From the NCBI GenBank assembly GCA_013298595.1, contig JAAFIG010000004.1, positions 108,860 through 172,859 on the forward strand: a stretch of 64,000 nucleotides of DNA, written 5' to 3'. The position numbers were made by a program, and so were the translations under genes. Below are positions 1 through 64,000 of the stretch, one piece after another. Position 1 is the stretch's first letter. Each line of letters opens with the position of its first letter. The stretch is from Deinococcales bacterium. GTDB lineage: Bacteria; Deinococcota; Deinococci; Deinococcales; JAAFIG01. The notes beneath the pieces were generated by a model, which saw only the letters and a program-made list of their open reading frames with translations, did not search any database and was not told the DNA's origin.

Positions 1-69
1 GAGGGTACTAACAAGAACAACAGGCGTGCCAAAGTACATGATTTTTGGTTCAACAATTTTGTGATTCAT
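1..69 (-). CDS. Flavin reductase-like domain protein, N-terminal fragment
   Basis: Reading leftwards from an ATG at 67-69, an open frame runs off the window edge and gives 23 residues beginning MNHKIVEPKIMYFGTPVVLV. The FGTPVVLVSTL pattern resembles the N-terminus of flavin reductase-like (RutF/DIM6-type) FMN-binding proteins, in which this strand helps form the split-barrel flavin site. No clear Shine-Dalgarno precedes the start. Only the first part of the gene is present, so the assignment rests on a short match. Confidence 0.5.
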   Translation of the reverse strand, partial: MNHKIVEPKIMYFGTPVVLVSTL

Positions 70-343
70 AGGTATTAAGCTTAGGTCGAGCACCCAAAAG
101 CCACAATCTGATTCTTGTGCAGCAATAAAAGCTCTATTTAATCTCGAGTTTAAAAATCTGTCCTTTGCGCCTCACCACCCATATGATAAAGTCCTAACTT
201 GGCTTGGTCTTTGGTAGAGGTACGAGCCACCGGCAATACCGCCCGGACAACCCTCGAGACGACGTTCCCCCGAGCTGGCATCTCGAGCCACAAAGCGGCT
301 TAACCGCACAGCAGACAATGCTTTGCGATTTTGGAGAATCATC

Positions 344-793
344 ATGTTCAAAACGTACTTACCTGCTAAAACAGACCCTCGCTGGGTTGTTGTGGATGCT
401 GAAGGCATGACCCTTGGTCGTTTAGCAACCCAAATTGCCACGCTGATACGCGGCAAACACAAACCCGATTACACCCCACACCTCGGCAACGGCGATTATG
501 TGATCGTAGTCAACGCCGAAAAAGTGGTGTTAAGCGGCAACAAAATGAGTGGCAAAATCTACACTCGTTACAGCGGCTACCCAAGTGGTTTGAAACTCGA
601 GCCAGCCAACATCGCCATCGAAAAGCATCCAGAACGCGTCATCGAACACGCCGTCTTTGGAATGTTACCAAAAGGACGTTTAGGACGTGCAATGCACACC
701 CACTTAAAAGTCTACAAAGGCGAAACCCACCCACACGAAGCACAAAAACCCGTCAAACTCGAATTGCCACACGGCAAGAATGAGGTGAAATAA
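344..793 (+). CDS. rplM: 50S ribosomal protein L13
   Basis: L13 is an early-assembling protein of the large ribosomal subunit that binds 23S rRNA. The 149-residue product starts [11 protein letters not shown] and shows the family hallmarks WVVDAEG-like, LGRLAT and the C-terminal [17 protein letters not shown] start seven codons upstream is possible, but the ATG at 344 follows a GGAGA and gives the normal N-terminus. The stop codon overlaps the rpsI start by one base, the usual rplM-rpsI operon. The 150 bases upstream hold several short inverted segments with two CTCGAG copies and may be a structured leader; I could not match it to a known ribosomal leader. Confidence 0.97.
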
Positions 794-1185
794 TGGCAGT
801 CGAGATGTTCTACGGCACTGGTCGCCGCAAAGCCAGCATCGCTCGAGTTTTCCTCAAAAGCGGCGAAGGTCGAATCACCGTCAATGGCAAAGATTTCCAA
901 GATTACTTCCGTGGTATCTTACGTGCCTTACAAGCCCTCGAGCCATTGCGTGCCACTGGAGCAGTTGGTCGTTTTGACGCTCGTATCACCGTCGAAGGTG
1001 GCGGTCCCAGCGGTCAAATAGACGCAATTAAACTCGGACTTGCTCGAGCCTTGGTACGTTTAGACGTGGACAACCGCGCTAAGCTCAAACCAGCTGGCTT
1101 ATTAACCCGCGATTCCCGCGAGGTCGAAAGCAAAAAAGCAGGTCTCAAAAAAGCACGTCGCGCCCCACAATTCAGCAAGCGTTAA
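793..1185 (+). CDS. rpsI: 30S ribosomal protein S9
   Basis: S9 belongs to the small-subunit head, and its basic C-terminal tail reaches the P-site tRNA. The 130-residue protein has FYGTGRRKASIARVFLKSG near the start, GGGPSGQIDAIKLGLARAL in the middle, and ends RRAPQFSKR, the typical KR tail. The ATG overlaps the rplM stop codon (TAATG), so translation is coupled. A strong terminator follows directly. Confidence 0.98.
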   Translation: MAVEMFYGTGRRKASIARVFLKSGEGRITVNGKDFQDYFRGILRALQALEPLRATGAVGRFDARITVEGGGPSGQIDAIKLGLARALVRLDVDNRAKLKPAGLLTRDSREVESKKAGLKKARRAPQFSKR

Positions 1186-1200
1186 AATTTTGTTCAAAAC

Positions 1201-1238
1201 AAAAAAGGCAAAGAGAAAATCTTTGCCTTTTTTGTTTT
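1201..1238. terminator. Rho-independent terminator between rpsI and folA
   Basis: A perfect 13-bp stem AAAAAAGGCAAAG / CTTTGCCTTTTTT with a 7-base loop is followed by further T-rich sequence. It lies between two convergent genes and, with A-rich and T-rich flanks, can serve both strands. Confidence 0.9.
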
Positions 1239-1262
1239 ACCTTCGCTAATCACCACTACGGT

Positions 1263-1748
1263 TTACGATTTCTTGCGCTCGAGCGTGACCCATTCAAAAT
1301 TAAACGCATGTTTTTCGTCTATGCCATGTGCTACTCTCGAGGTTTCTTGCCACTCGAGCGCATTCCAACTGGGGAAGAACACATCGGCACTGGCTACTCG
1401 AGTATTGACAAAAGTCAGGTGTAATTTTGCGGCATGTGGTAGTGCAAGGCTGTATACCTCTCCTCCACCAATCACCATCAGGTTTGGCTCGAGGGCAAGG
1501 GCTTCTTCTAAATGATGTACCACTTCGATGCCAGCTGCGTTAAAACCCGTGTCCCGAGTCAGAATGATATTTCGACGCTTAGGCAGTGGTCTGCCGATGC
1601 TGAGGAAGGTTTTACGCCCCATCAGCACAGTTTTGTCTAAAGTTATTTGCTTAAAGAATTTGAGATCGTCGGGTAAATGCCAAGGCATGGCGTTGTTAAA
1701 GCCAATAGCGTTGTTCAGGTCAAGGGCTGCTACAAGCTCGAGATTCAT
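1263..1748 (-). CDS. folA: Dihydrofolate reductase
   Basis: This enzyme reduces dihydrofolate to tetrahydrofolate with NADPH, regenerating the cofactor oxidised by thymidylate synthase. The 161-residue protein has the N-terminal [22 protein letters not shown] (substrate-site Trp, Leu and Asp), the NADPH-binding [18 protein letters not shown], and the GGGEVY turn. Length is normal. The start overlaps the thyA stop by four bases, so the pair is a coupled thyA-folA operon. The 3' end faces rpsI across the shared terminator. Confidence 0.96.
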
Positions 1749-9181: not shown

Positions 9182-12100
9182 TTAATCAGCTGCAATAGCA
9201 TTACTCGAGGTTCGGGCTGGAATTTGAATAATATGTTCGCCGCTGGTACGAATTAACTCGAGTTCGGTTTTTAAGCGCTCAATTTCAAGGCGAAGCACAG
9301 CAATGTAGAAGATGGCAAAACTAATCAGGGTCAGTATCGTTAGGACAATAAAAATAATTTGTGGATAAGCTTTGCCAAGCGCAGCAAATAACAGTGGTAA
9401 AGCAAAACCACCAAGCCCACCAAGTAAGCCCACTAAGCCGCCAACCACACCAATATCTTTGGCATACCAGTGTGTCACCAGTTTGTAATTACTGGCTTTA
9501 CCAACGCCCATACCAATACCAACAACAACGGTGATGCAGGTAAAAATTGGCAAACTGATAATACTTGCAGGTAATGCTAACAAAGCCAGTGCACTCATCA
9601 TGACAATAAACGAAACAAGTGTGACAGGACGTGCTCCAAATTTATCTGAGAGAAAGCCACCCAGTGGACGCAATAAACTAGCTGGAAAAATAAACAAAGC
9701 TGTCAGTAAACCTGCAACACTCAGTGGTAAATCGTAAACATCCTCGTAATACTTAGGTAACCATAGTGAAAGCGCCACATAAGCACCAAAGAAAATCACG
9801 TAATACAAACCAAAACGCCAAACCTGAATTTTTGTTAACGGACGCAACCACTCGAGCATGGTTTTACGGGTGGTTGTAGCTTTATCTTTTGGCGCGTAGA
9901 ACTGCACAAACAAAGCGACCAGCACTAAGGCAATACCAAACATAAATGGCACAAACCGCCATCCATAAAAATACAGACCACTCGAGGCAGGTATCAGACC
10001 TATCATGCCTGGAGCCAGAAGTTTTGTGATACTAGCACCCACATTGCCAGCGCCAAATGTTCCGAGTGCCAAACCACTTTTTTCTTTTGCTACCCACGCA
10101 CCAATCCAAGCGTTACCAATAGCAAAACTCACACCAGCAAAGCCAATAAAAAAGGCTAAGGTCAGAATACTCGAGTAAGTGGTTAGCGTTGGTAAAATAA
10201 AGGCTGTACCAGCGGTAAACAGCATCAACGTCACAAACATGTTGCGTCCGCCAAAACGTTCTGCCATGATACCCGCAGGTAAACGCAAAAGCGACCCTGT
10301 GAGAATCGGTACAGCTGTTAAAAGTGCAAATTGCGAATCGGTTAAACCCATTTCTTTACGCAATGCCAAACCAACAATTGAAAACATCACCCAAACAGCA
10401 AACATCAAGGTAAAACCCATTGTGGCAGCAGTAATTACTCGAGCTTCGGGGGCTTGTGAAAATACAAAAGGACTGGCTTTGGCTCTGGTACGACGGGCTT
10501 CTCGAGTGGCAGCTCCTGAAAGTAAAGCGCTATAACCAAGTGGCAAGTTATTTGGAGCAAAAAATGGTTGATTGACAGGTGTTTCTAAGACATCCGAAAT
10601 TCGCTCGAGTTGAGCGGGTGTGACCTTAAAATCGGGCATGCGGCTAGTTGGGTCTAAGGTGGCTTTGGTTAAACGATTGGCATTGGCTAAACCAGCATAA
10701 TGAAAAGTGCTAAACACTGTGTCTTCACGGATTGAATCTTGAATCAGCACTGCAAAATCTGCACTACCCGATTCGGTGGTGACGCGCACTTTTTCGCCTT
10801 TTAAAACACCATATTGTTTTGCTAGGTTTGGGTGCATCTCGAGGACTGCATGTGGTGCTTTAGCATTGAGTTTTTCGTTGCGCCGTGTTTGCACACCACT
10901 TTGGTACTGATGGGCATTCCGACCCGTAGTGAAGTACACAGGTCGCTCGAAACTGGCAATCTCGGCGGGTAATCTATAAGCAATTGGCTCGAGATGTGCT
11001 TTGCCATCGGCATGAGCAAAACGTACAGCAAAAGGCTCAGGTATACCTGCATGCCCAAGATCTGGGCATGGGTAAAAAACACCATTTGGTTCAAGTTTTT
11101 CGTAGGTGATGCCCGAGTAATCAGCACTCGAGCCTTTAGTAGCTGCTGCTAATTCTGTGAAAATTTCACGTGGACTACTAAAAGCAAATTTATCACCAAC
11201 ACCAAGCAACTCGGCAATCTGACACAGAATCTGCCAATCGGCTCGAGCTTCGCCAGGTAAATTCGTGGCTTGGCGACGACGCAAAACTCGTCCCTCGAGA
11301 TTGGTCATGGTGCCATCTTCTTCAAGCCACATGCTGCCAGGCAAAACCACATCTGCCAGTTGTGCTGTTTCGGAAAGGAAAAAATCGATGACCACCAAAT
11401 GCTCGAGGCTACCAAGATGACGGGTTACAGCTAAGCTATTGGCTGCGCTGACCACAGGGTTAGAACCAAGTACCAGCAAACCCTGAATTTTACGACCACA
11501 TGCCTCGAGTAATTCCTGAGCGCTCAGCCCTTTACGTGGTAATTCTGATTCAGCAATTCCCCAAAAATCGGACATAAAAGTGCGAGCTGCTGGGTCTTCA
11601 ATCAAACGATAACCTGGTAGTTGATCGGCTTTTTGTCCGTGTTCACGCCCACCCTGACCATTTCCTTGACCAGTTAAAGGCGCATAAAAACCACCCATTG
11701 CCAAGGCTAAATTGAGCAAAGCTTTAATTGTTTCAACACCTCGAGAAGATTGTTCAGGACCGCGCCCAGATAAAATAAGTAAAGTGCCTTTTTGAGCGCT
11801 AGTGCCCATGACTTTGGCTGTTTCACGAATGACCATTGCATCCACACCACAACGCGCAGCTGCCCATGCTGGCGTGCAATAACGCACACTCTGCGCCACA
11901 GCTGCCCAACCAGAAACTCGAGCTTCGAGAAAGGCAATATCTAAAAGGTTTTCGGAAATCAGTGCATTGAGTAAACCAAGTGCCAAAGCCAAATCGCCAT
12001 TTGGTTGCACAGGAATATGCAAAGTTCCAAGTTTGGTACTTGGTGTGGCACGCGGGTCAACCACAATAATTGGTGCACCATTCTTGCGTGCTCTTGCGAC

Positions 12101-12673
12101 AAATTGCGAAACAGGTGGCAAAGTTTCTGCTAAATTACTGCCCCATAAAACAATACAACTTGCCTCGGCGACTTTCTCGAGTGGAAATGGCAAACCCCGA
12201 TCCATACCGTAAACGGCTCGCATGGCAGCTCCAGCGCTGCTCATACAGTAACGCCCGTTGTAATCGATATTGGCTGTTTTTAAAGCAACTCGAGCAAATT
12301 TACCCAGTAAATATGTTTTCTCATTGGTTAAACTGCCACCACCAAACACAGCGAAGGCATTGCGACCATATTCGGATTGAACACGTTTGATGTTACTTGA
12401 AACTCGAGCCAATGCCTCTTGCCAAGTGGCAGGTACAAGCTCACCATTCTGACGCACCAAAGGGGTCAAGAGCCGTTCTGCGTGGCTTGGCTCCTCGAGG
12501 GCAGCTAAACCTTTTTTGCAGACACTGCCATGCGCCACAGGGCAAGCAGGCGTGCTGCGCAATGCCAGTAATTCATTGCCTTTGTGTTCGATTTCAAAAG
12601 TACACTGCACTGCGCAATATGGGCAGGTGGTTTTTGTCACCTGAGCTGTTGGCTCGAGAAATGACATGGTCAT
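9182..12673 (-). CDS. Assimilatory nitrate reductase fused to a NarK-type MFS transporter
   Basis: One uninterrupted 1163-codon frame encodes two normally separate proteins. Residues 1-700 form a molybdopterin oxidoreductase of the NasA/NarB type. Its [4Fe-4S] ligands are Cys17, Cys20, Cys24 and Cys52, a likely Mo-ligand Cys lies in YNGRYCMSSAGAAMR, and the C-terminal MGD-binding domain contains FTTGRNAHQYQSG. Residues 744-1140 form a 12-helix nitrate/nitrite transporter (TAATMGFTLMFAVWVMFS, RLPAGIMAERFGGRN, GNAWIGAWV). A linker of about 40 residues joins them. The fusion would place nitrate entry and reduction at the cytoplasmic face of the membrane. It sits between nirA and nrtA. No frameshift or stop separates the parts. 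Confidence 0.93.
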   Translation of the reverse strand: MTMSFLEPTAQVTKTTCPYCAVQCTFEIEHKGNELLALRSTPACPVAHGSVCKKGLAALEEPSHAERLLTPLVRQNGELVPATWQEALARVSSNIKRVQSEYGRNAFAVFGGGSLTNEKTYLLGKFARVALKTANIDYNGRYCMSSAGAAMRAVYGMDRGLPFPLEKVAEASCIVLWGSNLAETLPPVSQFVARARKNGAPIIVVDPRATPSTKLGTLHIPVQPNGDLALALGLLNALISENLLDIAFLEARVSGWAAVAQSVRYCTPAWAAARCGVDAMVIRETAKVMGTSAQKGTLLILSGRGPEQSSRGVETIKALLNLALAMGGFYAPLTGQGNGQGGREHGQKADQLPGYRLIEDPAARTFMSDFWGIAESELPRKGLSAQELLEACGRKIQGLLVLGSNPVVSAANSLAVTRHLGSLEHLVVIDFFLSETAQLADVVLPGSMWLEEDGTMTNLEGRVLRRRQATNLPGEARADWQILCQIAELLGVGDKFAFSSPREIFTELAAATKGSSADYSGITYEKLEPNGVFYPCPDLGHAGIPEPFAVRFAHADGKAHLEPIAYRLPAEIASFERPVYFTTGRNAHQYQSGVQTRRNEKLNAKAPHAVLEMHPNLAKQYGVLKGEKVRVTTESGSADFAVLIQDSIREDTVFSTFHYAGLANANRLTKATLDPTSRMPDFKVTPAQLERISDVLETPVNQPFFAPNNLPLGYSALLSGAATREARRTRAKASPFVFSQAPEARVITAATMGFTLMFAVWVMFSIVGLALRKEMGLTDSQFALLTAVPILTGSLLRLPAGIMAERFGGRNMFVTLMLFTAGTAFILPTLTTYSSILTLAFFIGFAGVSFAIGNAWIGAWVAKEKSGLALGTFGAGNVGASITKLLAPGMIGLIPASSGLYFYGWRFVPFMFGIALVLVALFVQFYAPKDKATTTRKTMLEWLRPLTKIQVWRFGLYYVIFFGAYVALSLWLPKYYEDVYDLPLSVAGLLTALFIFPASLLRPLGGFLSDKFGARPVTLVSFIVMMSALALLALPASIISLPIFTCITVVVGIGMGVGKASNYKLVTHWYAKDIGVVGGLVGLLGGLGGFALPLLFAALGKAYPQIIFIVLTILTLISFAIFYIAVLRLEIERLKTELELIRTSGEHIIQIPARTSSNAIAAD

Positions 12674-50677: not shown

Positions 50678-50974
50678 GTGAGCCGCACTCAAACTAAAAC
50701 TCGAGAAAAATCGCAGACCGCCACACCAAAACAGTGGAAGGTGCTTTTGTTAAATGATGATTACACCCCAATGGATTTTGTGGTGGAAGTTTTAATGCAG
50801 GTATTTCGCAAATCCGAAGAAGAGGCTGTGCGAGTCATGTTGCAAGTGCATCATGCAGGTGCTGGGTTAGCTGGTGTGTACACCTTTGAAGTTGCCGAAA
50901 CCAAAGTCATGCAAGTTGAGGATATGGCTCGTTCTGAAGGGCATCCGTTGCAATGCAGTCTCGAGCCTGAGTGA
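50678..50974 (+). CDS. clpS: ClpS adaptor protein
   Basis: ClpS delivers N-degron substrates to ClpA. The 98 residues contain [20 protein letters not shown] and [20 protein letters not shown], the substrate-binding surface of the family. The start codon is GTG. It immediately precedes clpA, as in many bacteria. Confidence 0.95.
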
Positions 50975-51030
50975 AGGCTTTTAGGCTTTCTTAATGTTCA
51001 TTGCGAAACATTGTCTGTGGCGAATTTCGC

Positions 51031-51042
51031 TAGAATACAACC
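51031..51042 (+). promoter_or_regulatory. Leaderless-type -10 box of clpA
   Basis: TAGAAT, six bases, then ATG. The same TAGAAT-ACAACC-ATG string occurs before the SufR-like regulator. Confidence 0.65.
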
Positions 51043-53265: not shown

Positions 53266-53340
53266 TACTCAAACCTTCTCATATCGTTGTGTCACAATTT
53301 TACTTATGCTTTTGTCGGTTCTGCATTTTAAAGAGTCTCT

Positions 53341-54399
53341 ATGGTAACTCGAGAAGTGACCATGCCATTTCTTGCCTTGCTTATTCTAGGCATGGGTTTA
53401 CTGACCGTCTCGAGTGTTGCAACCCCCGAAAATGTGGTCAAACAACTCATTGGTGTTGGTTTGATGATTGCGCCAATACTGGCAGTCTGGTTTTTGGGAC
53501 GGCGGCGTTTATACCAATTGACTGTGCCACTGTATGGTGGTTCGTTGTTACTCATGGTTTTAGTCAGTTTATTTGGGGTTGAAATCAGTGGTAATCGAAA
53601 TTGGTTCGCCTTACCTGGTTTTCAATTTCAACCACTCGAGTTTGGAAAATTAGCTTTTGTACTGATGCTCGCAAAGTACTTGCGCGATCCGTTTAAATCG
53701 GTTAGAGATTATATTCCAGTAGCAGCTATTTCTTTGCCTTTACTGGCAATTACTTTTATTGGCACAGGTGACACTGGTGGGGTAATGGTTTTAACTGCCA
53801 TTATCCTTGGCATGATGGCAACTCGAGGTGTGCCGTGGAAACATGTACTGATTGGCGTAGTAGCACTAGGCATTCTGATTCCAACCGTGGTTGTACCGCG
53901 ATTATCAAATTTTCATAAGGAGCGTTTAACCATTTTCCTCAACCCAGAAGCAGATGCTCGAGGCAAGGGGTATCAGTACATTCAAAGTCGGATTGCAATT
54001 GGTTCTGGTGGTGTTTCGGGTAAAGGTTATCGCCAAGGTACACAATCCCAAGGTGGCTTTGTTCCTGCCGATCACACCGATTTTATTTTTGCCCCGTGGG
54101 CAGAAGAACAGGGCTTTATTGGCGCTGTTTTTATGTTAATTATTTTTGTGGCATTATTCTGGCGTATCGCTGCGCTCGGTGGTGAGTGTATTCACAGCAC
54201 AGACCGCTTAGCCATTGGTGGGATGCTATCTTTACTTGGTTTTCAGGTGCTCGAGAATATTGGTGCTGCCATTGGCGTTGCACCTTTGACTGGTTTAACA
54301 TTGCCACTGGTCAGTTACGGACCCTCGAGTTTATTATCAACAGCCAGTGCGCTAAGCATTATCTATGTGATTCACCGCGACCGTTTTGAGGATTTCTAA
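53341..54399 (+). CDS. rodA: FtsW/RodA/SpoVE (SEDS) family peptidoglycan glycosyltransferase
   Basis: The 352-residue protein has about ten membrane helices and SEDS motifs: GNRNWFALPGFQFQPLEFGK (QPSE-type, with Leu for Ser), the catalytic-loop DHTDFIFAPWAEEQGF and LTGLTLPLVSYGPSSLL (Pro in place of the second Gly of SYGGSS). It polymerises lipid II in elongation or division; RodA is favoured by length and the short termini. An in-frame ATG eight codons downstream is possible. Confidence 0.88.
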   Translation: MVTREVTMPFLALLILGMGLLTVSSVATPENVVKQLIGVGLMIAPILAVWFLGRRRLYQLTVPLYGGSLLLMVLVSLFGVEISGNRNWFALPGFQFQPLEFGKLAFVLMLAKYLRDPFKSVRDYIPVAAISLPLLAITFIGTGDTGGVMVLTAIILGMMATRGVPWKHVLIGVVALGILIPTVVVPRLSNFHKERLTIFLNPEADARGKGYQYIQSRIAIGSGGVSGKGYRQGTQSQGGFVPADHTDFIFAPWAEEQGFIGAVFMLIIFVALFWRIAALGGECIHSTDRLAIGGMLSLLGFQVLENIGAAIGVAPLTGLTLPLVSYGPSSLLSTASALSIIYVIHRDRFEDF

Positions 54400-54403
54400 A
54401 AGC

Positions 54404-54433
54404 TACAATCCGCCCCTCAAAGGGCGGATTGTA
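54404..54433. terminator. Hairpin after rodA
   Basis: TACAATCCGCCC / GGGCGGATTGTA is a perfect 12-bp stem with loop CTCAAA, five bases after the stop codon. There is no strong T tract. Confidence 0.7.
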
Positions 54434-54447
54434 TGAAAAGCCATTTT

Positions 54448-54584
54448 ATACCAAATTAACTTAATCACTCTCGTTTGACCAAAAAGCAGTCAAACTGTTG
54501 TTCAAGCGTTAATTTGGTTTTGTTGCTACTCCTGTTAGTCGGTTAATCAGTCAAAATACGCGACTGATTAACACAATTTGGTAT
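54448..54584. mobile_element. MITE-like 137-bp element with terminal inverted repeats
   Basis: ATACCAAATT (54448-54457) and AATTTGGTAT (54575-54584) are perfect 10-bp terminal inverted repeats. Inside are GTTAATCAGTC / GACTGATTAAC (54542-54572) and TTTGAC / GTCAAA (54474-54494). It has no coding capacity. It lies between rodA and greA, with the right end touching the greA stop codon. Only one copy occurs here, so mobility is unproven; a structured RNA is the alternative. Confidence 0.4.
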
Positions 54585-55036
54585 TATTCAAAGTGAATGT
54601 CAAGGATAGCAACTTCGCGTCCTTTAACACTGACTTTTTTACCCACTGTTTTATCCATTAAAGCCATACCCATATCGCTTTGGTCACTGATTTTTCCTTT
54701 TGCAGGGTCAACTTCGTGGGTTGAAACAATGGTAAAAACACGTTCAGCACCGTTCATACTAATTTTTACCGTGGCACCTAAACCAACTTTTTTCTGGCTC
54801 GAGTCGTCTACAATTTCGGCTTTGGCAAGAATACCTTCAAGTTGGAAAATACGGGTTTCTAAGGCACCCATTCTTTGTCTGGCATCATCGTAACCACTAT
54901 TTTCGGAGATATCACCTTCTGACATCACATCGGACATAAACGCACTAATTTCATCGCGTCCAGCAGTACTTAAATGCTCGAGTTCGGCTTTGAGTTTGTC
55001 ATAGCCTTTTTGTGTTAAACGAACTTTATCACTCAT
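54584..55036 (-). CDS. greA: Transcription elongation factor GreA
   Basis: GreA stimulates transcript cleavage by backtracked RNA polymerase. The 150-residue protein has the N-terminal coiled coil with tip acids in SEGDISENSGYDDARQRM (Asp and Glu kept; ENSGY replaces the common ENAEY) and the C-terminal FKBP-like domain (VGLGATVKISMNGAERVFTI, MGMALMDKTVGKKVSV). Thermus also has the GreA antagonist Gfh1, but the intact EGD-SEN tip favours GreA. AAAGGA precedes the ATG. Confidence 0.92.
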   Translation of the reverse strand: MSDKVRLTQKGYDKLKAELEHLSTAGRDEISAFMSDVMSEGDISENSGYDDARQRMGALETRIFQLEGILAKAEIVDDSSQKKVGLGATVKISMNGAERVFTIVSTHEVDPAKGKISDQSDMGMALMDKTVGKKVSVKGREVAILDIHFE

Positions 55037-55113
55037 GATTCTTTTTCCTTTGACGAACTAGCAGCAAGAGTATACCTTATTGCCCTCGAACTGCTTTTGT
55101 GGCACAACGGTTA

Positions 55114-56082
55114 TTAAACTTCAAATTTCACAAAGCCTTTGCCTTCAAGGTGAACACTTTCGATGATTCGTTCATCGTGCGGGGTGTTCTCGAGGGCGCT
55201 GGCTATGATATCCACATATTTTGAGAGTGGGGTGTTAATCACTTTTTTAGCGAGGGTTTCTTCGGTTTGGAAAATCCCTGCGCTGTTGGTCATACGCACC
55301 CGAATTTCGATTGGTTTATCTTGTCCTCGAGAAATTGTGACTTGTTCGATACTCAGTGCCGAAACACTATGAATATCTATTTTACCTAGGGCAAAGGCTT
55401 TGCGTCCACGCCCCTTGGTAATGTCTGTACCATCAGCCACAGCAGTTACGCCACCTTCAAGGGTCAGTGGTGCTGGGTTGAGATCGTGACAATTAATGCT
55501 GTGCAAAATAAAAGCTCTGAGTTTTGTGCGATGCGCTACATCGGGGTAAACAACCCCAAGGATACGTTCGAGAATTGGTAAGGATAATGCTACACCGTGG
55601 GCTTCATGAGCAGCTCGGTGCACTTGATTACCAATATCGTGCAACATTGTGCCAAGCAACACCACCAAGTAGGTATCGTCGGTATCGCCACTGCCAGACT
55701 CGAGCACATCACCACGAATACCTTGTTCAAGTAATAACTCGAGTAAGGCAAGGCTGGCAGCTCCTGTGACATAAGCATGAACCCGACCATGATCGTTATA
55801 CCCAAGTTTTCTGACTGTGATGTAATTTGCCATATCCCAATTGGCAATGGCTTCTTGGTCAGCAATCAGTAATTCATAGGCTTTTAAGGTTTTAGGGTAC
55901 GGCTCGAGGTCACGGCGAATAGCTTGGTCAGCTTCGGCAATCAAGTTGTTACGGGCGGTGGGAAATTCAACATCCGAACTGCCTGGAGTAACATATTCAG
56001 GTTCGATAGGTTTTGTACCTGCTCGTTGCAAGTTTGCATCGCGTCCGACATGCACATTAAGTTTTAAGCGTTCTCGATTCAT
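55114..56082 (-). CDS. HD-domain phosphohydrolase
   Basis: The 322-residue cytosolic protein has an HD core: HGRVHAYVTGAASLALLELL (first His), MLHDIGNQVHRAAHEAHGV (HD pair near residue 147) and a downstream Asp in GGVTAVADGTDITKGRGR. The C-terminal 90 residues form a separate alpha/beta domain. Substrate could be a nucleotide or a phosphorylated messenger. It is co-directional with the three-gene operon upstream and separated by a hairpin only, so it may belong to that operon. Confidence 0.82.
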   Translation of the reverse strand: MNRERLKLNVHVGRDANLQRAGTKPIEPEYVTPGSSDVEFPTARNNLIAEADQAIRRDLEPYPKTLKAYELLIADQEAIANWDMANYITVRKLGYNDHGRVHAYVTGAASLALLELLLEQGIRGDVLESGSGDTDDTYLVVLLGTMLHDIGNQVHRAAHEAHGVALSLPILERILGVVYPDVAHRTKLRAFILHSINCHDLNPAPLTLEGGVTAVADGTDITKGRGRKAFALGKIDIHSVSALSIEQVTISRGQDKPIEIRVRMTNSAGIFQTEETLAKKVINTPLSKYVDIIASALENTPHDERIIESVHLEGKGFVKFEV

Positions 56083-56089
56083 AAAAACT

Positions 56090-56134
56090 AAGGGTAAAGA
56101 TTAAGGGGTACAACCCCTTTTCACTTTTACCCTT
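56090..56134 (-). other. Nested hairpin between the HD gene and the coiled-coil gene
   Basis: An outer AAGGGTAAAG pairs with CTTTTACCCTT (one bulge), and an inner AAGGGG-TACAA-CCCCTT forms a 6-bp stem. It resembles the hairpin between nrtB and nrtD in its GGTAAAAG core. Confidence 0.55.
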
Positions 56135-56142
56135 TCAACCTC

Positions 56143-59100
56143 CTAAGCAGCTTGCGACCAATTGCGTAGCACTTCAAAATCCCGTTGGGCATTGGCAAAA
56201 ATTCGGCTCATAACAGCAACATCATCTATTTTGACTGTAATAAAATGCTTGGTTTCGTTTTCACCTGCCAAAAACACCATCAGCAAGGTGCCACTGCTTT
56301 GTTCGACAGTACAAATACGTGCTGGACGACGCTCGAGTTCTTTGGCAAGTTCGCGTTGGTAACGATCCATCTCGATGAGCAAAGTGGCAATCTTGGCGGG
56401 TTCGTGGATGCTACCTGCTTGTAAATCACCATTTGCCGAAATTAAAGCCGCTTGGGCAACGCCACGTTCTTTGAGTACATCAGCAATCCAGATAGCAGCA
56501 ACACTATTTTGCACACCACTTGAGGAAACTGTTTGTACCACTGGTGCACTGAGTTCTTCGATTTCTTCGGCTGGTGATGTTTTAGCTTCAACAACGGCTT
56601 GTTGTAAACCACTAGTATCACCACCAAAAATGCCAAGTAAATCATCTATCTGCCCCATATCACGCAGAGCCGCCGCAACTGCTGTGGCAGCTTCAGCTTC
56701 TTGACGGGCAACAACCAATAAACGCTCAGCATCTTCGAGGGTACGCTCGAGTTTTAAGCGTGTTTCAGGAGATAATCTGGTACCAGGCTCGGTTGCCAAC
56801 ACGGTGCTTAAACGCAACAGTTGACGAATTGTTTCACCACCCATTTGACGATATTGATTGACTTCGCGCATCACTGTTTCGGCACGGGTTCGCCACGCAC
56901 CAGCGGCGGCTTCTTCGGCAATTCGTAAACCCTCAAGTGCATCCCAAAGCGGGGCGAGATTGGTTAGCATACCTGCTTCGTGACGACCTCGAGCTTCGGC
57001 GATCTGAGTTTGTAACATCACACTTTGTTGGCTGCCACTAAATTCTTTAATAGCACTTTCTAAGTCTGATAATTCGCGGCGCTGAGCAGCTAATCTCGAT
57101 TCGCGGTGAGCGCGTAAATCGGCTTCAAAATTGGCTAAATCTGGGAAGTTACCTGTTTCTAAACCATCTTTGGCTTGGGATAAATTGAGTGAAACTTCAA
57201 ATGCACCCAGTTCTACAGCCCGTTTTTCAAAATCAGCAATCCGTTGTAGGTAAATTTCTTTGGCACGTTTACCCAAGTTTTCCAAATTGACTTTGAACGA
57301 TTCAATACTCGAGGTAATCGGATTACCATTTTCGATTTGTTTAGCTGATAAACCTAATTGAGCTTCTAGGGCAGCATGATCTGTAGCCAATTCTGGCAAG
57401 TCTGGTAAAGCCGCTAACGAGAAACGCATGGCACGTAACATGCCAGCTTCTCGAGCCACCAGAGCACGGCGTTCGGACTCTAAGCGCTCAGTTTCGCGTT
57501 GTTCAGCAGCAATTCTTTCAGCTTCCAGACGTTCACGTTCACGTTGCTCGGCAGCTAAGCGTTCACGCTCAGCCCTTTCTCGCTCAAGACGTTCGGCTTC
57601 AGCGCGTTCCATTGCCTGCATCCGTTCGCTTTCGATGCGTTTTTGCTCGAGACGTTCAGCTTCTAAACGGGCTTCTTCTGCTTTACGACGTTGTTCCTCG
57701 AGCAAACGAGTGGCTTCTGCTTGACGTTCAGCAGCGGCTCGTTGTTCGGCTTGCCATATTTCAAGAGCGTCTTGTAAACGCGTCATTTCTTCGGATAAAC
57801 CCTTTGCAAGGTCTTCACGTGGTTGACGCAACTGATTTGCCATTTCTAATTCGGTTAGTAATCTCGAGAAACTGGTGGTATTGGCAGCCCCTAATGGTTC
57901 AAAAGTGGCTAATGCACCACGCAATTCGTCTAGCATAGCAGCTTGTCTTGCCAACGCTCGTTCCAAACGAGCGGCTTCTTCAGCACGAACCTGACGCACT
58001 TCCTCGAGTTGACGCTCAAATGTCCGCAGTAAATCCTCGAGTTTTTTCAATTCATCAGTAGCAAGGCTTTTGCCTGCCAACATACCACTGGCAACCGAGG
58101 CTGTTACACTGGCTTCGTTGGTGTCTAAGCCTTCAGCAGCAAATGGTGCAAAAACTTGTTGTAACTCAGCAACTCGAGCTGTTTGTTGAGTTAAAGCAGC
58201 TTGCATCCCTGATTCTAACTCGGGGCGCAACGCTTTAATTGCTTCGGTTTGCACTTCTCTGGCAGTATTAGCATGTTGCAAATCCAACAATTTTTGTTGC
58301 AACACAGGATTTAACTCGAGAATCTGAGCAAAATCCAGTGCCAAACCTTCTATCATACGGGTGTCTTCGGATAATTCGATATCTTTGACCCGTTCTGATT
58401 GTTCTGGGCTAAGTTCAAGCTCAGGGAAGTCGAGATCAATATTGATACTGTCTTCTAAACCATCAATTTCAACTAAGCCATCAAAAGCATCGGCTTTGGG
58501 TTCGTTAATCACGGTGTCATCAATAACAATCGCATCATCTAATTCGATGGCTGGTAAATTAATCTGTGATGGACTGGTTGGCACAATGGTTGGGGCTTTA
58601 ATCGCAGGGACAGAAGGTGGTACTTGCACCACCGAAGATTCAATCAGTTTACGTAACTCTGTTACTAATTTACGTGCCCGTTCCATTTCAGCAGGGGCTA
58701 AAGTCTGAGCCGCTTGGGCTTCGGTAATCTGAGCCACCAATGCTTCTAAGCGCTTAACTCGAGGTCCACCAACCGATTTAACTTTTTCAAAACCACCTTG
58801 TAATTCGGCGATTTCCTGCGCTTGACGCACCAATAAATCCTGTAATTTCCGCTCGAGTGCCACCAATTGCGATTGAGCATCGCGCAGCAAATCTGGCACA
58901 CCACGCCCAGCTTGTTGTTGCTCACGGATAACATTGATTTGGCTACGAAATTTACTAACCTCAGCCCATTCAAAATACAGATTAAAGCGTTTTAAGCCTT
59001 CCTCGAGCACCACCAAGGATTCGCCTTGACGATCCGAAACAGTATCTTTAGGGCTTTGACCAGCACTGGCTGCTGCACCCGCGCCACCTTGCTCGAGTCG

Positions 59101-59331
59101 TGCCAATTCATCAAGCACTTTTTGCACCAACGCCTTAGCATTGGCTGGTGGCAATGCCACTTGTAACTGCTTATAGACACTGGATTTTAAGACTTTTTCC
59201 ACATCTCGAGCTGAAGCGTCATTGGCAGATTTACCAATGCGTTGTAAACCTTCCTCGAGGCTGTTACGGGCTGCCTTTAAGTTGATATCGGCATCAAAGA
59301 ATTTGGTAATTGCACTATATAAAGGTGTCAT
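56143..59331 (-). CDS. Giant coiled-coil protein with N-terminal motif and C-terminal roadblock-like domain
   Basis: The 1062-residue protein lacks signal and membrane segments. Residues 1-75 include LKSSVYKQLQVALPPANAKA, a motif also found in the protein encoded at 61184-62293. Residues 340-900 are mostly coiled coil, with an extreme Arg/Glu-rich part at about 523-634 (RRKAEEARLEAERLEQKRIE). The last 120 residues (GVAQAALISANGDLQAGSI, LLMVFLAGENETKHFITVKI) look like a roadblock/LC7 fold. Its ATG overlaps the previous stop (TAATG). A cytoskeletal or scaffold role is inferred; family not recognised. Confidence 0.7.
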   Translation of the reverse strand: MTPLYSAITKFFDADINLKAARNSLEEGLQRIGKSANDASARDVEKVLKSSVYKQLQVALPPANAKALVQKVLDELARLEQGGAGAAASAGQSPKDTVSDRQGESLVVLEEGLKRFNLYFEWAEVSKFRSQINVIREQQQAGRGVPDLLRDAQSQLVALERKLQDLLVRQAQEIAELQGGFEKVKSVGGPRVKRLEALVAQITEAQAAQTLAPAEMERARKLVTELRKLIESSVVQVPPSVPAIKAPTIVPTSPSQINLPAIELDDAIVIDDTVINEPKADAFDGLVEIDGLEDSINIDLDFPELELSPEQSERVKDIELSEDTRMIEGLALDFAQILELNPVLQQKLLDLQHANTAREVQTEAIKALRPELESGMQAALTQQTARVAELQQVFAPFAAEGLDTNEASVTASVASGMLAGKSLATDELKKLEDLLRTFERQLEEVRQVRAEEAARLERALARQAAMLDELRGALATFEPLGAANTTSFSRLLTELEMANQLRQPREDLAKGLSEEMTRLQDALEIWQAEQRAAAERQAEATRLLEEQRRKAEEARLEAERLEQKRIESERMQAMERAEAERLERERAERERLAAEQRERERLEAERIAAEQRETERLESERRALVAREAGMLRAMRFSLAALPDLPELATDHAALEAQLGLSAKQIENGNPITSSIESFKVNLENLGKRAKEIYLQRIADFEKRAVELGAFEVSLNLSQAKDGLETGNFPDLANFEADLRAHRESRLAAQRRELSDLESAIKEFSGSQQSVMLQTQIAEARGRHEAGMLTNLAPLWDALEGLRIAEEAAAGAWRTRAETVMREVNQYRQMGGETIRQLLRLSTVLATEPGTRLSPETRLKLERTLEDAERLLVVARQEAEAATAVAAALRDMGQIDDLLGIFGGDTSGLQQAVVEAKTSPAEEIEELSAPVVQTVSSSGVQNSVAAIWIADVLKERGVAQAALISANGDLQAGSIHEPAKIATLLIEMDRYQRELAKELERRPARICTVEQSSGTLLMVFLAGENETKHFITVKIDDVAVMSRIFANAQRDFEVLRNWSQAA

Positions 59332-61187
59332 TAAAATTCCTCATCCCATTCGACAATGGTTCGACCCGCACTGGAATTGGGGTTGGTTGGGTTGGTTGGA
59401 TTACGGATTTGTTGTGAGGATGTACTTTTGACCGATGCAGGCTCATTGGTTAGCGGTGTACGGGTACGAATTAAGCCAAATTGGGCTGCAATGCCGCGAA
59501 AACCAATAGTAGCAAAAATAACGGTCACAATCAGCATCAGTGCCCAGATCATTTGCGCTAACGGATTTTGCAGCACCGAAAGCGAGGTTAAGCCATTAAA
59601 AAAATTCTTGACTGGTACAATTTCGGTGCTTTGGGCAATCAAAGAACCTACCCAAGAGATACCCTCGAGTAGTGGCGGAATAAACAACAGCAACATAGCA
59701 ATACCGATATAATTCCAGTAAGGATTACGTCCACCGAAAGCTAAACGCAGTAAGTAAATCGGGTAAATGAAAGCAAGTGCCACCAATAAGAAAATAATGC
59801 CGCGCAAACCAAAACTGCCAAGCGCTCCACCACCCATCCACCACGATTGGGCTGTTGAAACAACACCCTGCATTGCTGACATTGGTTGTTGGCGTGACCA
59901 TTGACGCACCACATCCACTTCGCTCAGCAGTGTTGAAATATCCACTGGGCGTACACCCGAAGCGGCTTCGGTGGCTGCGAATAAATTACTGGCTCGAGCT
60001 GCCAATCCAGGATCAGCTTCTTTGACAATTGGACTGACACCTTGGTTAAATAAATTCTTAGCGCTGCTAATGGACTCACGTCCAGAATCAATCCGAGCAT
60101 TTTGCACATCTATTAAAGCACTCGCCAGTTGTAATGAAATTGCATCCAGTAATTTTGAAAAACTCGAGTACCCCTGTTCAGCTAAATCTCGGGCAAAACG
60201 TTCTGCTTTAGCTGGGTTAATACCTGCACTGACAAGTTCGCGGGTGATGGTAGCTGTTGGAACAGCTACTGGTTTTACCACTGGTTTAGACATCACTGGC
60301 GTAGTTGGTTTAGCCATTGCCAAAGTACTTGGTTTGGCAGTTTGTGGTTTGCTTGGGGCTGGTTTTGTACTTGGTTTGACACTTGGTTTGGGTTTAGCAG
60401 CAGGTTTAGGTTTAGCCACACTGCTTTTTAAGAGTGCTCGAGCCTTGGCACCAAAACTGGTTACTTGTTGCAATAAACCCTTGACACCAACACGAAAACC
60501 ACCTGTATCACCATTTGCCAATAAGCCCAAAACTTCTGAGTACCGCTCAACCGATAATGCCCCAACTCGAGGTGAATCTTGGACAATTAAAAAAGCACTA
60601 GCAGCCCGAACCGTACTCGAGAACGAAGCAATTTGATTGTTCGCATTGCGTTGTGCATTTTGCAAACTGCGCTGCATTAAATTAGCAATACCCGTCTCGA
60701 GCAAAGCCCGCACACGATTATCTTGGCGTTTTTGCACACTGGCTTTGAGATCCAATTGCTGAGCTGTTGGTAATTCAAAAGCTCGAGCTAAAACACCAGC
60801 GTACTTTATTGCGCTTGGTTGTTTTGCTGACATTGCAAAAAACAATTCTTCGTACAAAGCACGTTCAATAATTCGCTCAATCTGCGAGCTTTGCGCTTCT
60901 AAATCAGTCAAACTACCCCGAGAAATTGCGGTTCGTGCATTATCAAAAGCTTTTGCACCAGCCGGAATCAGTTTTTGTGCCCGAATCTCAGAAGAAATTC
61001 GGCGATACCGATCTCGAGCTTCTTCTAAACGGGTCACTGAGGCTCGAGGATTAACCCCCAAAGCCGAAGCTGATTGTTTTAAAGAAGTTGTGATTGCCTG
61101 ATATCCTTCGAGTAAACCCGCTGCTTGCACTGTCTGTAAAGCGCAGAGTGCAATAACCATCAAGCAAATACGATTCCAATATCTCAT
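59331..61187 (-). CDS. Exported multi-pass membrane protein of the coiled-coil operon
   Basis: The 618-residue protein has a signal sequence (ICLMVIALCALQTVQA) and a helical external domain. A Lys/Pro/Thr-rich linker follows at about 256-315 (repeated KPS/KPT units, VAKPKPAAKPKPSVKPSTKP). A second helical domain has a repeated AGINPAKAERFARDLAEQGY segment, and three C-terminal membrane helices lie at 449-567 (GIIFLLVALAFIYPIYLLRL, YIGIAMLLLFIPPLLEGISW, MIWALMLIVTVIFATIGFRG). The start overlaps the preceding stop by four bases. Such a layout could link envelope and cytoplasmic partner. No family recognised. Confidence 0.7.
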   Translation of the reverse strand: MRYWNRICLMVIALCALQTVQAAGLLEGYQAITTSLKQSASALGVNPRASVTRLEEARDRYRRISSEIRAQKLIPAGAKAFDNARTAISRGSLTDLEAQSSQIERIIERALYEELFFAMSAKQPSAIKYAGVLARAFELPTAQQLDLKASVQKRQDNRVRALLETGIANLMQRSLQNAQRNANNQIASFSSTVRAASAFLIVQDSPRVGALSVERYSEVLGLLANGDTGGFRVGVKGLLQQVTSFGAKARALLKSSVAKPKPAAKPKPSVKPSTKPAPSKPQTAKPSTLAMAKPTTPVMSKPVVKPVAVPTATITRELVSAGINPAKAERFARDLAEQGYSSFSKLLDAISLQLASALIDVQNARIDSGRESISSAKNLFNQGVSPIVKEADPGLAARASNLFAATEAASGVRPVDISTLLSEVDVVRQWSRQQPMSAMQGVVSTAQSWWMGGGALGSFGLRGIIFLLVALAFIYPIYLLRLAFGGRNPYWNYIGIAMLLLFIPPLLEGISWVGSLIAQSTEIVPVKNFFNGLTSLSVLQNPLAQMIWALMLIVTVIFATIGFRGIAAQFGLIRTRTPLTNEPASVKSTSSQQIRNPTNPTNPNSSAGRTIVEWDEEF

Positions 61188-62293
61188 GCCGTCTCCTTCA
61201 AGGATTCCAATTCAGTAAAAACCCGTCCGACATTGACTGCTTTATCGGCAAGCACTGTGAGTATCTTATCCTCTAATGGCGCAATAAATGCGCTTACACT
61301 TTCTAAATGGGTGTAAAACACACGAAAAGAGTGCCGTTTAATCAGTAAGAGCGTAGTGGCTGCTACTACCCCAGCTAAGTGATTAGCACTACCACTCGAT
61401 AAACGCGAAGCAATCACATCACCAGCCCGTCCAGAAAGCAAGACACCTGTCACACCCTCTTCGGACGCAAACCGAGTTAACAATTGCTCTTGGGCTTCTG
61501 GTGTATCGAGTTTCACTTTTAAGACTGCGATTTTAGGTTTTTTTGGCACAACAGTTTCGGGTAATGGCAACGAAAACTCGAGCGGCGCAACAGGATCAAA
61601 TTCAATTGATGTCACTTCTGCTTCTGAAACTGATTCAAAAATTGGTGGTGGTAATTCATCAATAATGGTTAAATTCAAATCCTGATCTATACGCGCCACT
61701 GCGACCGCACCAGGACGACCCAAAGTTGGTCCTTGAGGATCGGTTTGTGTGTGTTCCAATTGAAATTGCAAAGGCTCAAATTCACCACTCTCGAGTAATA
61801 AATCACCTTTGAAACGCGGTTGTAAAGAAAATTCTGGTGCTGCATCAGATGATTGCTCGAGTTGCAATAAATCTAATTCTGCCCATAAATCGTTTAAAAC
61901 CCGTACAGGATCGGCTGAGTGTGGTAATTGTGCAATATTGCCAGCTAAACGAACGGCTCGAGGTGATAATTGATCGCCGATTTTGGCAAATTCATCACGC
62001 AACGCTAACCAACCTTCTTGCACTTCGGGTGGCAAGCTGCGATTAGCAGCAAATTCCTGCTCGAGCTGCCCTAGAATCTGGCGGATTTCGCCTTTGGCTT
62101 GTGCTACAGGAATAATTTGTTGCAAGCGAACAAAAACCACACTTTTCAGCAAAGATTGCATTTGCTCAGCTGTCACTTGCTCGGGTGTCATTCGCCCACC
62201 ACGTAAAGCTTCACGCACAATGTTCTCGGCAGCCCGCCGTGAAACAATACGCGACAATGCGTCACAGACGACATCATAGACCGCGTTAGGCAT
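61184..62293 (-). CDS. Roadblock-like protein, first gene of the coiled-coil operon
   Basis: The ATG at 62293 (MPNAVYDVVCDALSRIVSRR) follows TTGGAG; a TTG four codons earlier is less likely. Residues 35-75 (LLKSVVFVRLQQIIPVAQAK followed by GEIRQILGQLEQE) match the N-terminus of the 1062-residue protein. The last 105 residues (LLTRFASEEGVTGVLLSGRA, ANHLAGVVAATTLLLIKRHS, DKAVNVGRVFTELESL) resemble a roadblock/LC7 domain. A middle acidic linker joins them. Paralogy of both ends with the large protein suggests heteromeric assembly. Confidence 0.68.
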   Translation of the reverse strand: MPNAVYDVVCDALSRIVSRRAAENIVREALRGGRMTPEQVTAEQMQSLLKSVVFVRLQQIIPVAQAKGEIRQILGQLEQEFAANRSLPPEVQEGWLALRDEFAKIGDQLSPRAVRLAGNIAQLPHSADPVRVLNDLWAELDLLQLEQSSDAAPEFSLQPRFKGDLLLESGEFEPLQFQLEHTQTDPQGPTLGRPGAVAVARIDQDLNLTIIDELPPPIFESVSEAEVTSIEFDPVAPLEFSLPLPETVVPKKPKIAVLKVKLDTPEAQEQLLTRFASEEGVTGVLLSGRAGDVIASRLSSGSANHLAGVVAATTLLLIKRHSFRVFYTHLESVSAFIAPLEDKILTVLADKAVNVGRVFTELESLKETA

Positions 62294-62305
62294 TTTGAAC
62301 TCCAA

Positions 62306-62583
62306 AATTAGACATCACTGCCTATCAGTATACGCAATTCATACGACTTATTGCTCGAGAAATGCACATCTGCCTTAGCAAACAATGGCAAAGTATTCGT
62401 AACAACCTGCCCAACTCGGTATAAATCCTGTCAGGGACATCCAAAAAAACCATAACTCGGGGTAACAATAAAACCTTTGCAAAAAGCGTATTTGTACTGT
62501 CAAGGACATCTTCTCGAGCAATGTAACGCATAAATGTTTGTAAGACTCGAAAAGAATCCAGCCTAACCTGATACATTAACCAT
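62306..62583. other. Intergenic region before the manganese riboswitch
   Basis: No gene is seen. A 14-bp direct repeat, CTGTCAGGGACATC (62428-62441) and CTGTCAAGGACATC (62497-62510), occurs 69 bp apart. These could be regulator sites. The region must contain the promoters of the roadblock operon (leftward) and of the riboswitch (rightward). Confidence 0.5.
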
Positions 62584-62676
62584 GTTCGAGGGAGTAGCCA
62601 CCGCATAAGCGGTTGTACGCATCTCCAATCCAAGCAGAATATGCTTAGGTGCGTACCTTCACGGCAAGACTCGAGG
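62584..62676 (+). ncRNA. yybP-ykoY type manganese riboswitch
   Basis: The leader of the TerC gene contains the two hallmark segments of the Mn2+ riboswitch, GAGGGAGTAGCC (62588-62599) and GGCAAGACTC (62663-62672). They are joined by P1 (TCGAG with CTCGA) and enclose two hairpins (ACCGCATAAGCGGT; GCAGAATATGC). CATCTCC at 62620-62626 can pair with GGAGAT (62689-62694) or with the ribosome-binding GGAGG, a plausible expression switch. Genes of the TerC/Alx and MntP type are standard targets. I identify it by motif; a covariance search was not possible. Confidence 0.78.
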
Positions 62677-62711
62677 CGCAAACGCTTCGGAGATTGCTTT
62701 TGGAGGACATA

Positions 62712-63698
62712 ATGGATTGGTTAACGACTTTATTTTTAGGTAAAGCCCTGTGGATTTGGCTGGTTTTTCTTGCCATCGTATTTATTTTACTGATACTTGA
62801 TTTAGGTGTACTGCATAAGAAAAATAAGGAGATTAGTACAACCCAATCACTCTGGATCAGCGCTTTGTATATTGCCATTGCTTTAATTTATGGTGCTTGG
62901 ATTTGGTGGCAACTTGGTCAAACAGCAGCAATTCAGTATTACACTGGGTTCTTTATTGAAAAAACCTTAGCGCTCGATAATATTTTTGTTATTTCCCTGA
63001 TTTTTGCTTACTTCGCTATTCCGCCCCAATATCAGCACCGCGTTTTGTTCTGGGGAATCATTGGTGTGATCGTTTTACGTGGCATCATGATTGCGCTTGG
63101 TGCAACTCTGATACAGCAATTTGATTGGGTAATGTATATCTTTGCTGCTTTCTTGTTGGTGACTGGTATCAAAATGTTACTAGATGCTAACAAAGAACAC
63201 TCTACAGACCTAAGCCAAAACCCAATTCTGCGCTTCCTACGAAAACGAATGAAAATAACCAACGAAATCCATGGTGAAAAATTCTTTGTCCAACAACCCG
63301 ACCCGAAAACAGGCAAACTTGTTCGTTATGCAACACCACTTTTTCTTGCATTAGTACTGATCGAATTTGCCGACCTGATCTTTGCTGTTGATAGTGTTCC
63401 AGCCATTTTTGCAATCACCACCGACCCATTCATTGTGTACACCAGCAACATTTTCGCCATTCTTGGATTACGCGCCCTGTACTTTGCCCTTGCTGCCATG
63501 ATTCACCGCTTCAAATATCTCAAATACTCTCTCAGCATCATTCTGATATTTATTGGAGCAAAAGTCTTTTATAACCAAATCTTTGGCAAACTCGACCCAA
63601 TCATTTCACTCAGTATCACCCTCGGTATTCTCGGCGCAGGAATTGTTTACAGTTTACTCAAAACTCGGATAGATACACCAAAACCACTGGCACCATAA
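62712..63698 (+). CDS. TerC/Alx family integral membrane protein
   Basis: The start MDWLTTLFLGKALWIWLVFL at 62712 follows TTGGAGG. The 328-residue protein has about nine membrane helices with TerC motifs FFIEKTLALDNIFVISLIF and LVLIEFADLIFAVDSVPAIF, whose acidic residues form the metal site. Homologues under the same riboswitch export manganese. Here the upstream riboswitch supports Mn2+ efflux rather than tellurite resistance. The frame continues upstream through the riboswitch, which is not translated. Confidence 0.92.
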   Translation: MDWLTTLFLGKALWIWLVFLAIVFILLILDLGVLHKKNKEISTTQSLWISALYIAIALIYGAWIWWQLGQTAAIQYYTGFFIEKTLALDNIFVISLIFAYFAIPPQYQHRVLFWGIIGVIVLRGIMIALGATLIQQFDWVMYIFAAFLLVTGIKMLLDANKEHSTDLSQNPILRFLRKRMKITNEIHGEKFFVQQPDPKTGKLVRYATPLFLALVLIEFADLIFAVDSVPAIFAITTDPFIVYTSNIFAILGLRALYFALAAMIHRFKYLKYSLSIILIFIGAKVFYNQIFGKLDPIISLSITLGILGAGIVYSLLKTRIDTPKPLAP

Positions 63699-63713
63699 CG
63701 AAAGGAAATTCTT

Positions 63714-64000
63714 ATGCAAAAACTTTGCCCCATAGACGAAACAGTCCTCCTTGAGATGCAAAAAAACGGAGTCACCATAGATGTCTGCCCAGAATGCAAA
63801 GGAGTCTGGTTAGACCGAGGCGAACTTGAAAAACTCTTACAAGTGGCTCGAGACTTAGAACGCGAATATGGTGAACCCGAACGAAGCAAGCCACCTGAAT
63901 ACGACCGCCCTCGAACGGGTGAGTATGATCGCCCTCGAGCTGCTGAGTATGACCGCCCTCGAGAACCGTACCGCCGCGACGATGATGACGATGACCACCG
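63714..64000 (+). CDS. TFIIB-type zinc-ribbon protein, truncated by the window end
   Basis: After GAAAGGAAA the ATG starts MQKLCPIDETVLLEMQKNGV. CPEC with KGVWLDRGELEKLLQ completes a zinc ribbon of the zf-TFIIB family. A low-complexity tail then repeats EYDRPR three times in 21-base units (63898-63962) and ends in an acidic DDDDDDH run at the window edge. At least 95 codons are present. It follows the TerC gene by 15 bases and is probably co-transcribed under the Mn riboswitch. Function unknown. Confidence 0.82.
   Translation, partial: MQKLCPIDETVLLEMQKNGVTIDVCPECKGVWLDRGELEKLLQVARDLEREYGEPERSKPPEYDRPRTGEYDRPRAAEYDRPREPYRRDDDDDDH

What the first reader, a model, noticed from the sequence alone, without database searches (positions are those of the whole stretch)
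1..64000. CTCGAG behaves as a highly iterated palindrome in this genome
I count 22 copies in 3,492 bp of the nitrate reductase gene, some 30-fold above expectation for a genome near 45% GC (about 1 per 5 kb). Copies fall in all reading frames, intergenic DNA and terminator stems, so protein sequence does not explain it. CTC and GAG codons seem largely confined to these sites. This parallels HIP1 in cyanobacteria, but with another sequence in a probable Deinococcota member. A methylase, nucleoid protein or repair-related role is conceivable.
Basis: partly seen in the sequence, partly recalled or inferred. Interest (0 to 1): 0.82.

Follow-up and report, generated by a model that had tools for sequence, protein, structure and literature searches.

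The report
Extreme CTCGAG palindrome excess in Deinococcota
A six-letter palindrome, CTCGAG, occurs about once every 169 bases through an entire bacterial genome and its relatives, far more often than chance or protein coding can explain, which makes it a counterpart outside cyanobacteria to the unexplained 'highly iterated palindromes' of cyanobacteria.

Summary
Synonymous-codon shuffling predicts 12-fold fewer, with excess in all three frames and similar density in non-coding DNA. In this genome 65% of Leu-Glu dipeptides are written CTCGAG. The excess recurs in related Deinococcota: strongest in two uncultured families, moderate in Meiothermus-type genomes and some low-GC f5 genomes, absent in Thermus-like genomes, one relative (G007) and Deinococcus plasmid samples. 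Sites are retained between genomes (52% identical versus 12% for neighbouring hexamers). A new feature: copies repel each other below about 60-90 bp, independently of protein sequence and beyond generic hairpin avoidance. No DNA methyltransferase found is shared by the CTCGAG-rich genomes, and genomes with an XhoI restriction gene have fewer sites than siblings, so the methylase explanation is unsupported but not excluded. I favour weak selection (or recombination drive) on each copy as a site for an unidentified dimeric DNA-binding protein. It is a new, very dense variant of the HIP phenomenon outside cyanobacteria; no paper describing it was found in the library searched.

The parts
1..64000 (.). 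378 copies of the palindrome CTCGAG, 1 per 169 bp, spread over the whole window (14-34 per 4 kb)
9182..12673 (-). molybdopterin nitrate-reductase-like gene fused to an MFS transporter domain; 22 CTCGAG, the average density of the genome (20.7 expected at 1/169)
15576..18032 (.). 2,457 bp without any CTCGAG (chance about 2e-4 in the window), over gene 15744-18194 (CBM6 / InlB-repeat protein): probably recently acquired DNA
28100..62400 (.). region compared with four related genomes where alignable; CTCGAG retained far more often than neighbouring hexamers
37200..38510 (+). obg GTPase gene used to place the genome (91% identical to Deinococcales MAG JAAFJQ01)

Best explanation
CTCGAG is a highly iterated palindrome (HIP) carried by part of the phylum Deinococcota. 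Each copy is maintained as a DNA site, regardless of the protein or intergenic sequence it lies in, by weak per-site selection or an equivalent recombination drive. The selecting agent is most likely an abundant, sequence-specific, dimeric DNA-binding protein whose occupancy excludes a second site within about 25-60 bp; its role would be architectural (nucleoid) or DNA-handling (self-recognition or uptake). SHOWN: genome-wide excess, independence of coding, inter-genome retention, exclusion zone, patchy loss, transition-type decay products. INFERRED: the per-site advantage and the binding protein, which has not been identified.
For: Excess in every frame against synonymous shuffles and similar density in non-coding DNA. 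With proteins held fixed, Leu-Glu positions are written CTCGAG in 22% of cases within 12 bp of another copy, 44% at 12-24, 59% at 24-36, 64% at 36-60, 73% at 60-90 and 78-79% at 90-180; the same shape holds for the other two frames and for G001-G003. Pair correlation is 0.21 at 6-12 bp and reaches 1 near 80 bp; other common hexamers do not show this. GC-matched inverted repeats in coding DNA are only slightly depleted (0.74 at 7-12 bp, 0.9-0.97 at 12-24), so hairpin avoidance is too weak. 117 of 225 sites are identical in related genomes versus 460 of 3,687 neighbouring hexamers (p 2e-42). Long CTCGAG-free gaps are mostly AT-rich, and a HEPN/GmrSD/methyltransferase cluster has none, so sites accrue slowly after acquisition.
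Against: No binding protein was identified or tested. No helical (10.5-11 bp) phasing and no dependence on position within genes. Transition-type one-offs are 1.7-2.2-fold enriched, which a simple all-or-none site at equilibrium does not predict; it needs graded function, recombination or non-equilibrium. In cyanobacteria every HIP has a plausible cognate methyltransferase (PMC4390886), so precedent favours methylation. Retention at conserved Leu-Glu pairs (81%) is not far above the stationary usage of 65%, so conservation alone does not separate maintenance of a site from its re-creation.
Confidence: 0.42

Rival explanations
1. Methylation-linked HIP as proposed by Elhai for cyanobacteria: an orphan methyltransferase modifies CTCGAG and a methylation-dependent process (for example mismatch repair) creates and preserves the sites.
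For: All cyanobacterial HIPs have a candidate methyltransferase (PMC4390886). G000 carries an orphan-type C5 methyltransferase at C15 with orthologues in G001, G006 and, with a stop inside, G097. G024, which has a moderate excess, has an M.XhoI-like enzyme (48% to the enzyme beside an XhoI gene in G108) and no XhoI gene.
Against: The C5 enzyme has no close orthologue in the equally rich G002, G003 and G005, and no methyltransferase group spans the rich genomes. Genomes with a predicted active XhoI system have fewer sites than siblings. The 1 kb saturation of the repair model is absent: density is 1/169 and usage does not fall steadily with distance beyond 90 bp. Decay one-offs are about equal at all three positions, with no methylcytosine hotspot. 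Target specificities of the enzymes are unknown and the MAGs are incomplete, so this is not excluded.
Confidence: 0.3
2. DNA-uptake or self-recognition signal: competence machinery prefers CTCGAG-bearing fragments, and recombination spreads the site.
For: Explains accumulation, slow gain by acquired DNA and tolerated one-offs; an exclusion zone would reflect one signal per imported fragment. Thermus and Deinococcus species are naturally competent (own knowledge).
Against: Known uptake signals are non-palindromic and near 1 per kb (own knowledge). Competent Thermus and Deinococcus lack the excess in the samples read. Nothing tested directly.
Confidence: 0.13
3. Mutation or repair bias (VSP-type repair or context-dependent mutation) generates CTCGAG without any function.
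For: Excess is frame-independent and slowly acquired.
Against: A repair that converts near-misses should deplete them, but the transition one-offs are enriched at all three positions. A site-by-site bias does not predict repulsion up to 60-90 bp.
Confidence: 0.1
4. Codon usage, codon-pair or amino-acid effects, or an assembly artefact.
For: 57% of coding copies are in frame as CTC GAG.
Against: Synonymous shuffle, all-frame excess, non-coding density, and independent recurrence in several genomes.
Confidence: 0.02

Closest known systems
HIP1 (GCGATCGC) of cyanobacteria
   Same: Short palindrome, extreme genome-wide excess in coding and non-coding DNA, shared across related genomes with sporadic losses, function unresolved
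   Different: Another sequence and phylum; a hexamer at about 5,900 per Mb against 300-2,700 per Mb for HIP1; no shared cognate methyltransferase found; near-misses not biased to the ends; short-range exclusion shown here
Alternate HIPs (GGCGCC in Calothrix PCC 7103, GCsGC, rCCGGy, GGGATCCC)
   Same: A different palindrome takes over the HIP role; GGCGCC is also a hexamer
   Different: Those are sporadic in single strains or a pair; CTCGAG is shared by families; base-composition O/E 31 here
DNA uptake sequences (Neisseria, Pasteurellaceae)
   Same: Thousands of dispersed copies of a short signal
   Different: Palindromic, several times denser, no uptake evidence
XhoI / PaeR7I restriction-modification (CTCGAG)
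   Same: Same recognition sequence
   Different: XhoI-type endonuclease absent from the rich genomes; where present, CTCGAG is scarcer than in siblings

Membership tests
Highly iterated palindrome (HIP), general kind | Palindromic oligomer grossly over-represented genome-wide against composition and Markov models | tested here: met
Highly iterated palindrome (HIP), general kind | Present in coding and non-coding DNA and in all frames, not explained by codon usage | tested here: met
Highly iterated palindrome (HIP), general kind | Shared by related genomes, retained above background, with sporadic losses | tested here: met
Highly iterated palindrome (HIP), general kind | Cognate methyltransferase present in genomes with the excess | tested here: inconclusive
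   No shared enzyme in five Pfam families over 18 genomes; specificities unknown
HIP1 of cyanobacteria | Sequence GCGATCGC in cyanobacteria | tested here: not met
   Sequence is CTCGAG; genome is Deinococcota
HIP1 of cyanobacteria | One-base deviations concentrated at the first and last positions | tested here: not met
   Transition one-offs 1.91, 2.15 and 1.65 at positions 1, 2 and 3
Elhai repair-driven HIP model | Density saturates near one site per 1000 nt | tested here: not met
   1 per 169 nt; site usage does not decline steadily with distance beyond 90 bp
XhoI-type restriction-modification target | XhoI endonuclease gene (PF04555) in the genome | tested here: not met
   Not found in G000-G007
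DNA uptake sequence | Preferential uptake of DNA carrying the signal | not testable with these tools
   needs a transformation assay

The most novel reading that the evidence does not exclude
Part of the Deinococcota carries a sequence-specific chromosome-coating protein whose CTCGAG sites, averaging about 170 bp apart with a 25-60 bp exclusion zone, are written into most permissive codon pairs: a sequence-encoded nucleoid architecture.
Probability: 0.22. Interest if true: 0.92.

Novelty: new variant of a known kind. Interest (0 to 1): 0.8.

Why it matters
HIPs have been an open puzzle since the 1990s, with work confined to cyanobacteria in the literature found here. A second, independent and denser case in another phylum, with rich, intermediate and lost states in close relatives, allows comparative tests. 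It separates the phenomenon from any one sequence and, provisionally, from a conserved methyltransferase, and it adds a measurable property (short-range exclusion with proteins held fixed) that any mechanism must explain. One genome with the excess (G022) appears to be a cultured species, Allomeiothermus silvanus, so experiments are feasible. Codon usage in these genomes is also visibly shaped by the palindrome.

Tried and rejected
Codon-usage or amino-acid explanation: rejected by synonymous shuffles and non-coding density. Hairpin avoidance as cause of the repulsion: GC-matched inverted repeats in coding DNA are only slightly depleted. Helical phasing and gene-position effects: none. Methylcytosine-deamination hotspot at one cytosine: not seen. 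Conserved methyltransferase: five Pfam families in 18 genomes, clustering of hits, and a phylum-wide search with the orphan C5 enzyme; none fits. GAGCTC avoidance looked special but is part of a general avoidance of other palindromes. Literature for CTCGAG excess in Deinococcota, Meiothermus or Thermus: nothing found; Xu et al. 2018 on HIP1 selection is not held.

Full report
OBSERVATION. The window holds 378 CTCGAG (12.6 expected from base composition, 26 from an order-2 Markov model) and CTCGAG is its commonest 6-mer. The genome holds 27,159 in 4,582,226 bases, 1 per 168.7 bp; the reversed control GAGCTC has 15. Density is 1/167 in coding and 1/183 in non-coding DNA, in all frames. Against synonymous shuffling (same proteins, same codon usage) the excess over 400 kb is 12-fold: 11.4, 10.1 and 21.8 by frame. 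This is conservative because the codon usage itself is inflated by the motif. In this genome 65% of Leu-Glu dipeptides, 62% of [ASPT]R[EDGAV] and 35% of permissive x-S-[SR] positions are written CTCGAG; in G005 93% of Leu-Glu (small sample).

DISTRIBUTION. G001, in the same genus, matches the Deinococcales MAG JAAFJQ01 (ObgE 91%). All four genomes of the family have 1 per 155-169 bp. In the second family G005 and G006 have 1 per 129-160, G004 1 per 280, and G007 has lost it (683 in 2.3 Mb). By synonymous-shuffle O/E: f1 6-12; f2 4-14 (G007 0.5); Meiothermus-type f4 genomes 2.5-5; f4 genus g13, Thermus-like by size and GC, 0.8-1.3; f3 about 2; some low-GC f5 genomes 6-11 (small samples); G105 and G110 about 1. 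Plasmid samples of Deinococcus radiodurans, D. peraridilitoris, D. deserti (0.4-1.1) and Thermus thermophilus (0.5) show no excess; Allomeiothermus silvanus pMESIL01 shows 1.8. G022 is probably A. silvanus (contig sizes and a 1,092-bp 100% match that may be an insertion sequence). So the trait is widespread but not universal in the phylum.

MAINTENANCE. In alignments at 69-74% identity with G001, G002, G003 and G006, 117 of 225 sites are identical against 460 of 3,687 neighbouring in-phase hexamers (Fisher p 2e-42). At conserved Leu-Glu pairs CTCGAG is kept in 44 of 54 cases; other Leu-Glu hexamers are kept in 1 of 18. Because 65% of Leu-Glu are CTCGAG anyway, conservation alone does not separate maintenance from re-creation. 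One-offs are enriched only by transitions, about equally at the three positions (O/E 1.91, 2.15, 1.65; transversions 0.46-1.16), and 28 of 30 one-off differences between genomes are transitions. This looks like ordinary mutational decay, without a deamination hotspot, and opposite to what repair converting near-misses would leave. Foreign-looking DNA (AT-rich gaps; a GmrSD/HEPN/methyltransferase cluster) lacks the motif, so it accrues slowly.

SPACING. Pair correlation is 0.21 at 6-12 bp, 0.46 at 12-18, 0.69 at 18-24 and reaches 1 near 80 bp; other frequent hexamers do not behave so. With proteins fixed, the chance that a permissive Leu-Glu position is written CTCGAG rises from 22% within 12 bp of another copy to 73-79% at 60-180 bp, with no steady decline out to several hundred bp (few positions lie that far); the other two frames and three other genomes show the same shape. 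Generic inverted repeats of equal GC in coding DNA are depleted only to 0.74 at 7-12 bp and 0.9-0.97 at 12-24, so hairpin avoidance explains little. No 10.5-bp phasing and no trend along genes. A footprint-like exclusion is the simplest reading; repair with kilobase reach is not.

METHYLTRANSFERASES. PF07669, PF00145, PF01555, PF02384 and PF02086 were searched in 18 genomes. The hits form a patchwork without an orthologue common to the rich genomes. In G000 the C11 and C34 enzymes have endonuclease partners, C66 lies with GmrSD and HEPN genes, C9 is a large fused-type enzyme beside a helicase, C2 lies by a HerA-type gene, and the C15 C5 enzyme looks orphan; the latter occurs only in G000, G001, G006 and, with an internal stop, G097. 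The XhoI endonuclease occurs only in G012-G014, with fewer CTCGAG than siblings G009-G011, and in G108 with stop codons inside. G024 has an M.XhoI-like enzyme without XhoI. Methylation of CTCGAG is therefore possible in individual genomes but no common enzyme was found; unknown specificities and incomplete MAGs leave it open.

COMPARISON. HIP1 in cyanobacteria runs at 300-2,700 per Mb (PMC4390886); CTCGAG here is about 5,900 per Mb. Elhai's alternates include a hexamer (GGCGCC) but are sporadic, and his repair model expects saturation near 1 per 1000 nt, which is not seen here. It works like a HIP and meets the general defining features; it is not HIP1. No report of a CTCGAG HIP was found in the library searched, which lacks most subscription papers and Xu et al. 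2018. Own knowledge: HIP work has centred on cyanobacteria.

VERDICT. The phenomenon is real beyond reasonable doubt (about 0.98). The mechanism is not settled; a dimeric binding protein is favoured at about 0.42, methylation-linked maintenance next at about 0.3.

Noticed in passing
window 9182-12673 (-): One 1,163-aa frame joins a molybdopterin oxidoreductase (nitrate-reductase-like) to an MFS transporter domain: an apparent reductase-transporter fusion.
   Followed up: no
window 15576-18032: Largest CTCGAG-free stretch of the window, over a CBM6 / InlB-repeat protein gene; likely recent acquisition although GC is normal.
   Followed up: partly
window and G000 samples: Most other palindromic hexamers (GAGCTC, TTCGAA, GGCGCC, CCCGGG, AGGCCT, GACGTC and others) are almost absent, suggesting heavy restriction pressure; CTCGAG is the exception.
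   Followed up: partly
L134, L135, L136 (G012, G013, G014): XhoI endonuclease genes convergent with a beta-class methyltransferase about 60% identical to enzymes in G018 and Thermus-like G044; these genomes have fewer CTCGAG than siblings.
   Followed up: partly
L064 1963-5140 (G000 contig C66): HEPN, GmrSD-type (PADLOC NsnA) and permuted methyltransferase genes in a row with no CTCGAG: a recently acquired defence island.
   Followed up: no
L186 (G108) near 5700-6230: XhoI-type gene interrupted by stop codons beside an intact M.XhoI-like gene: a decayed restriction system.
   Followed up: no
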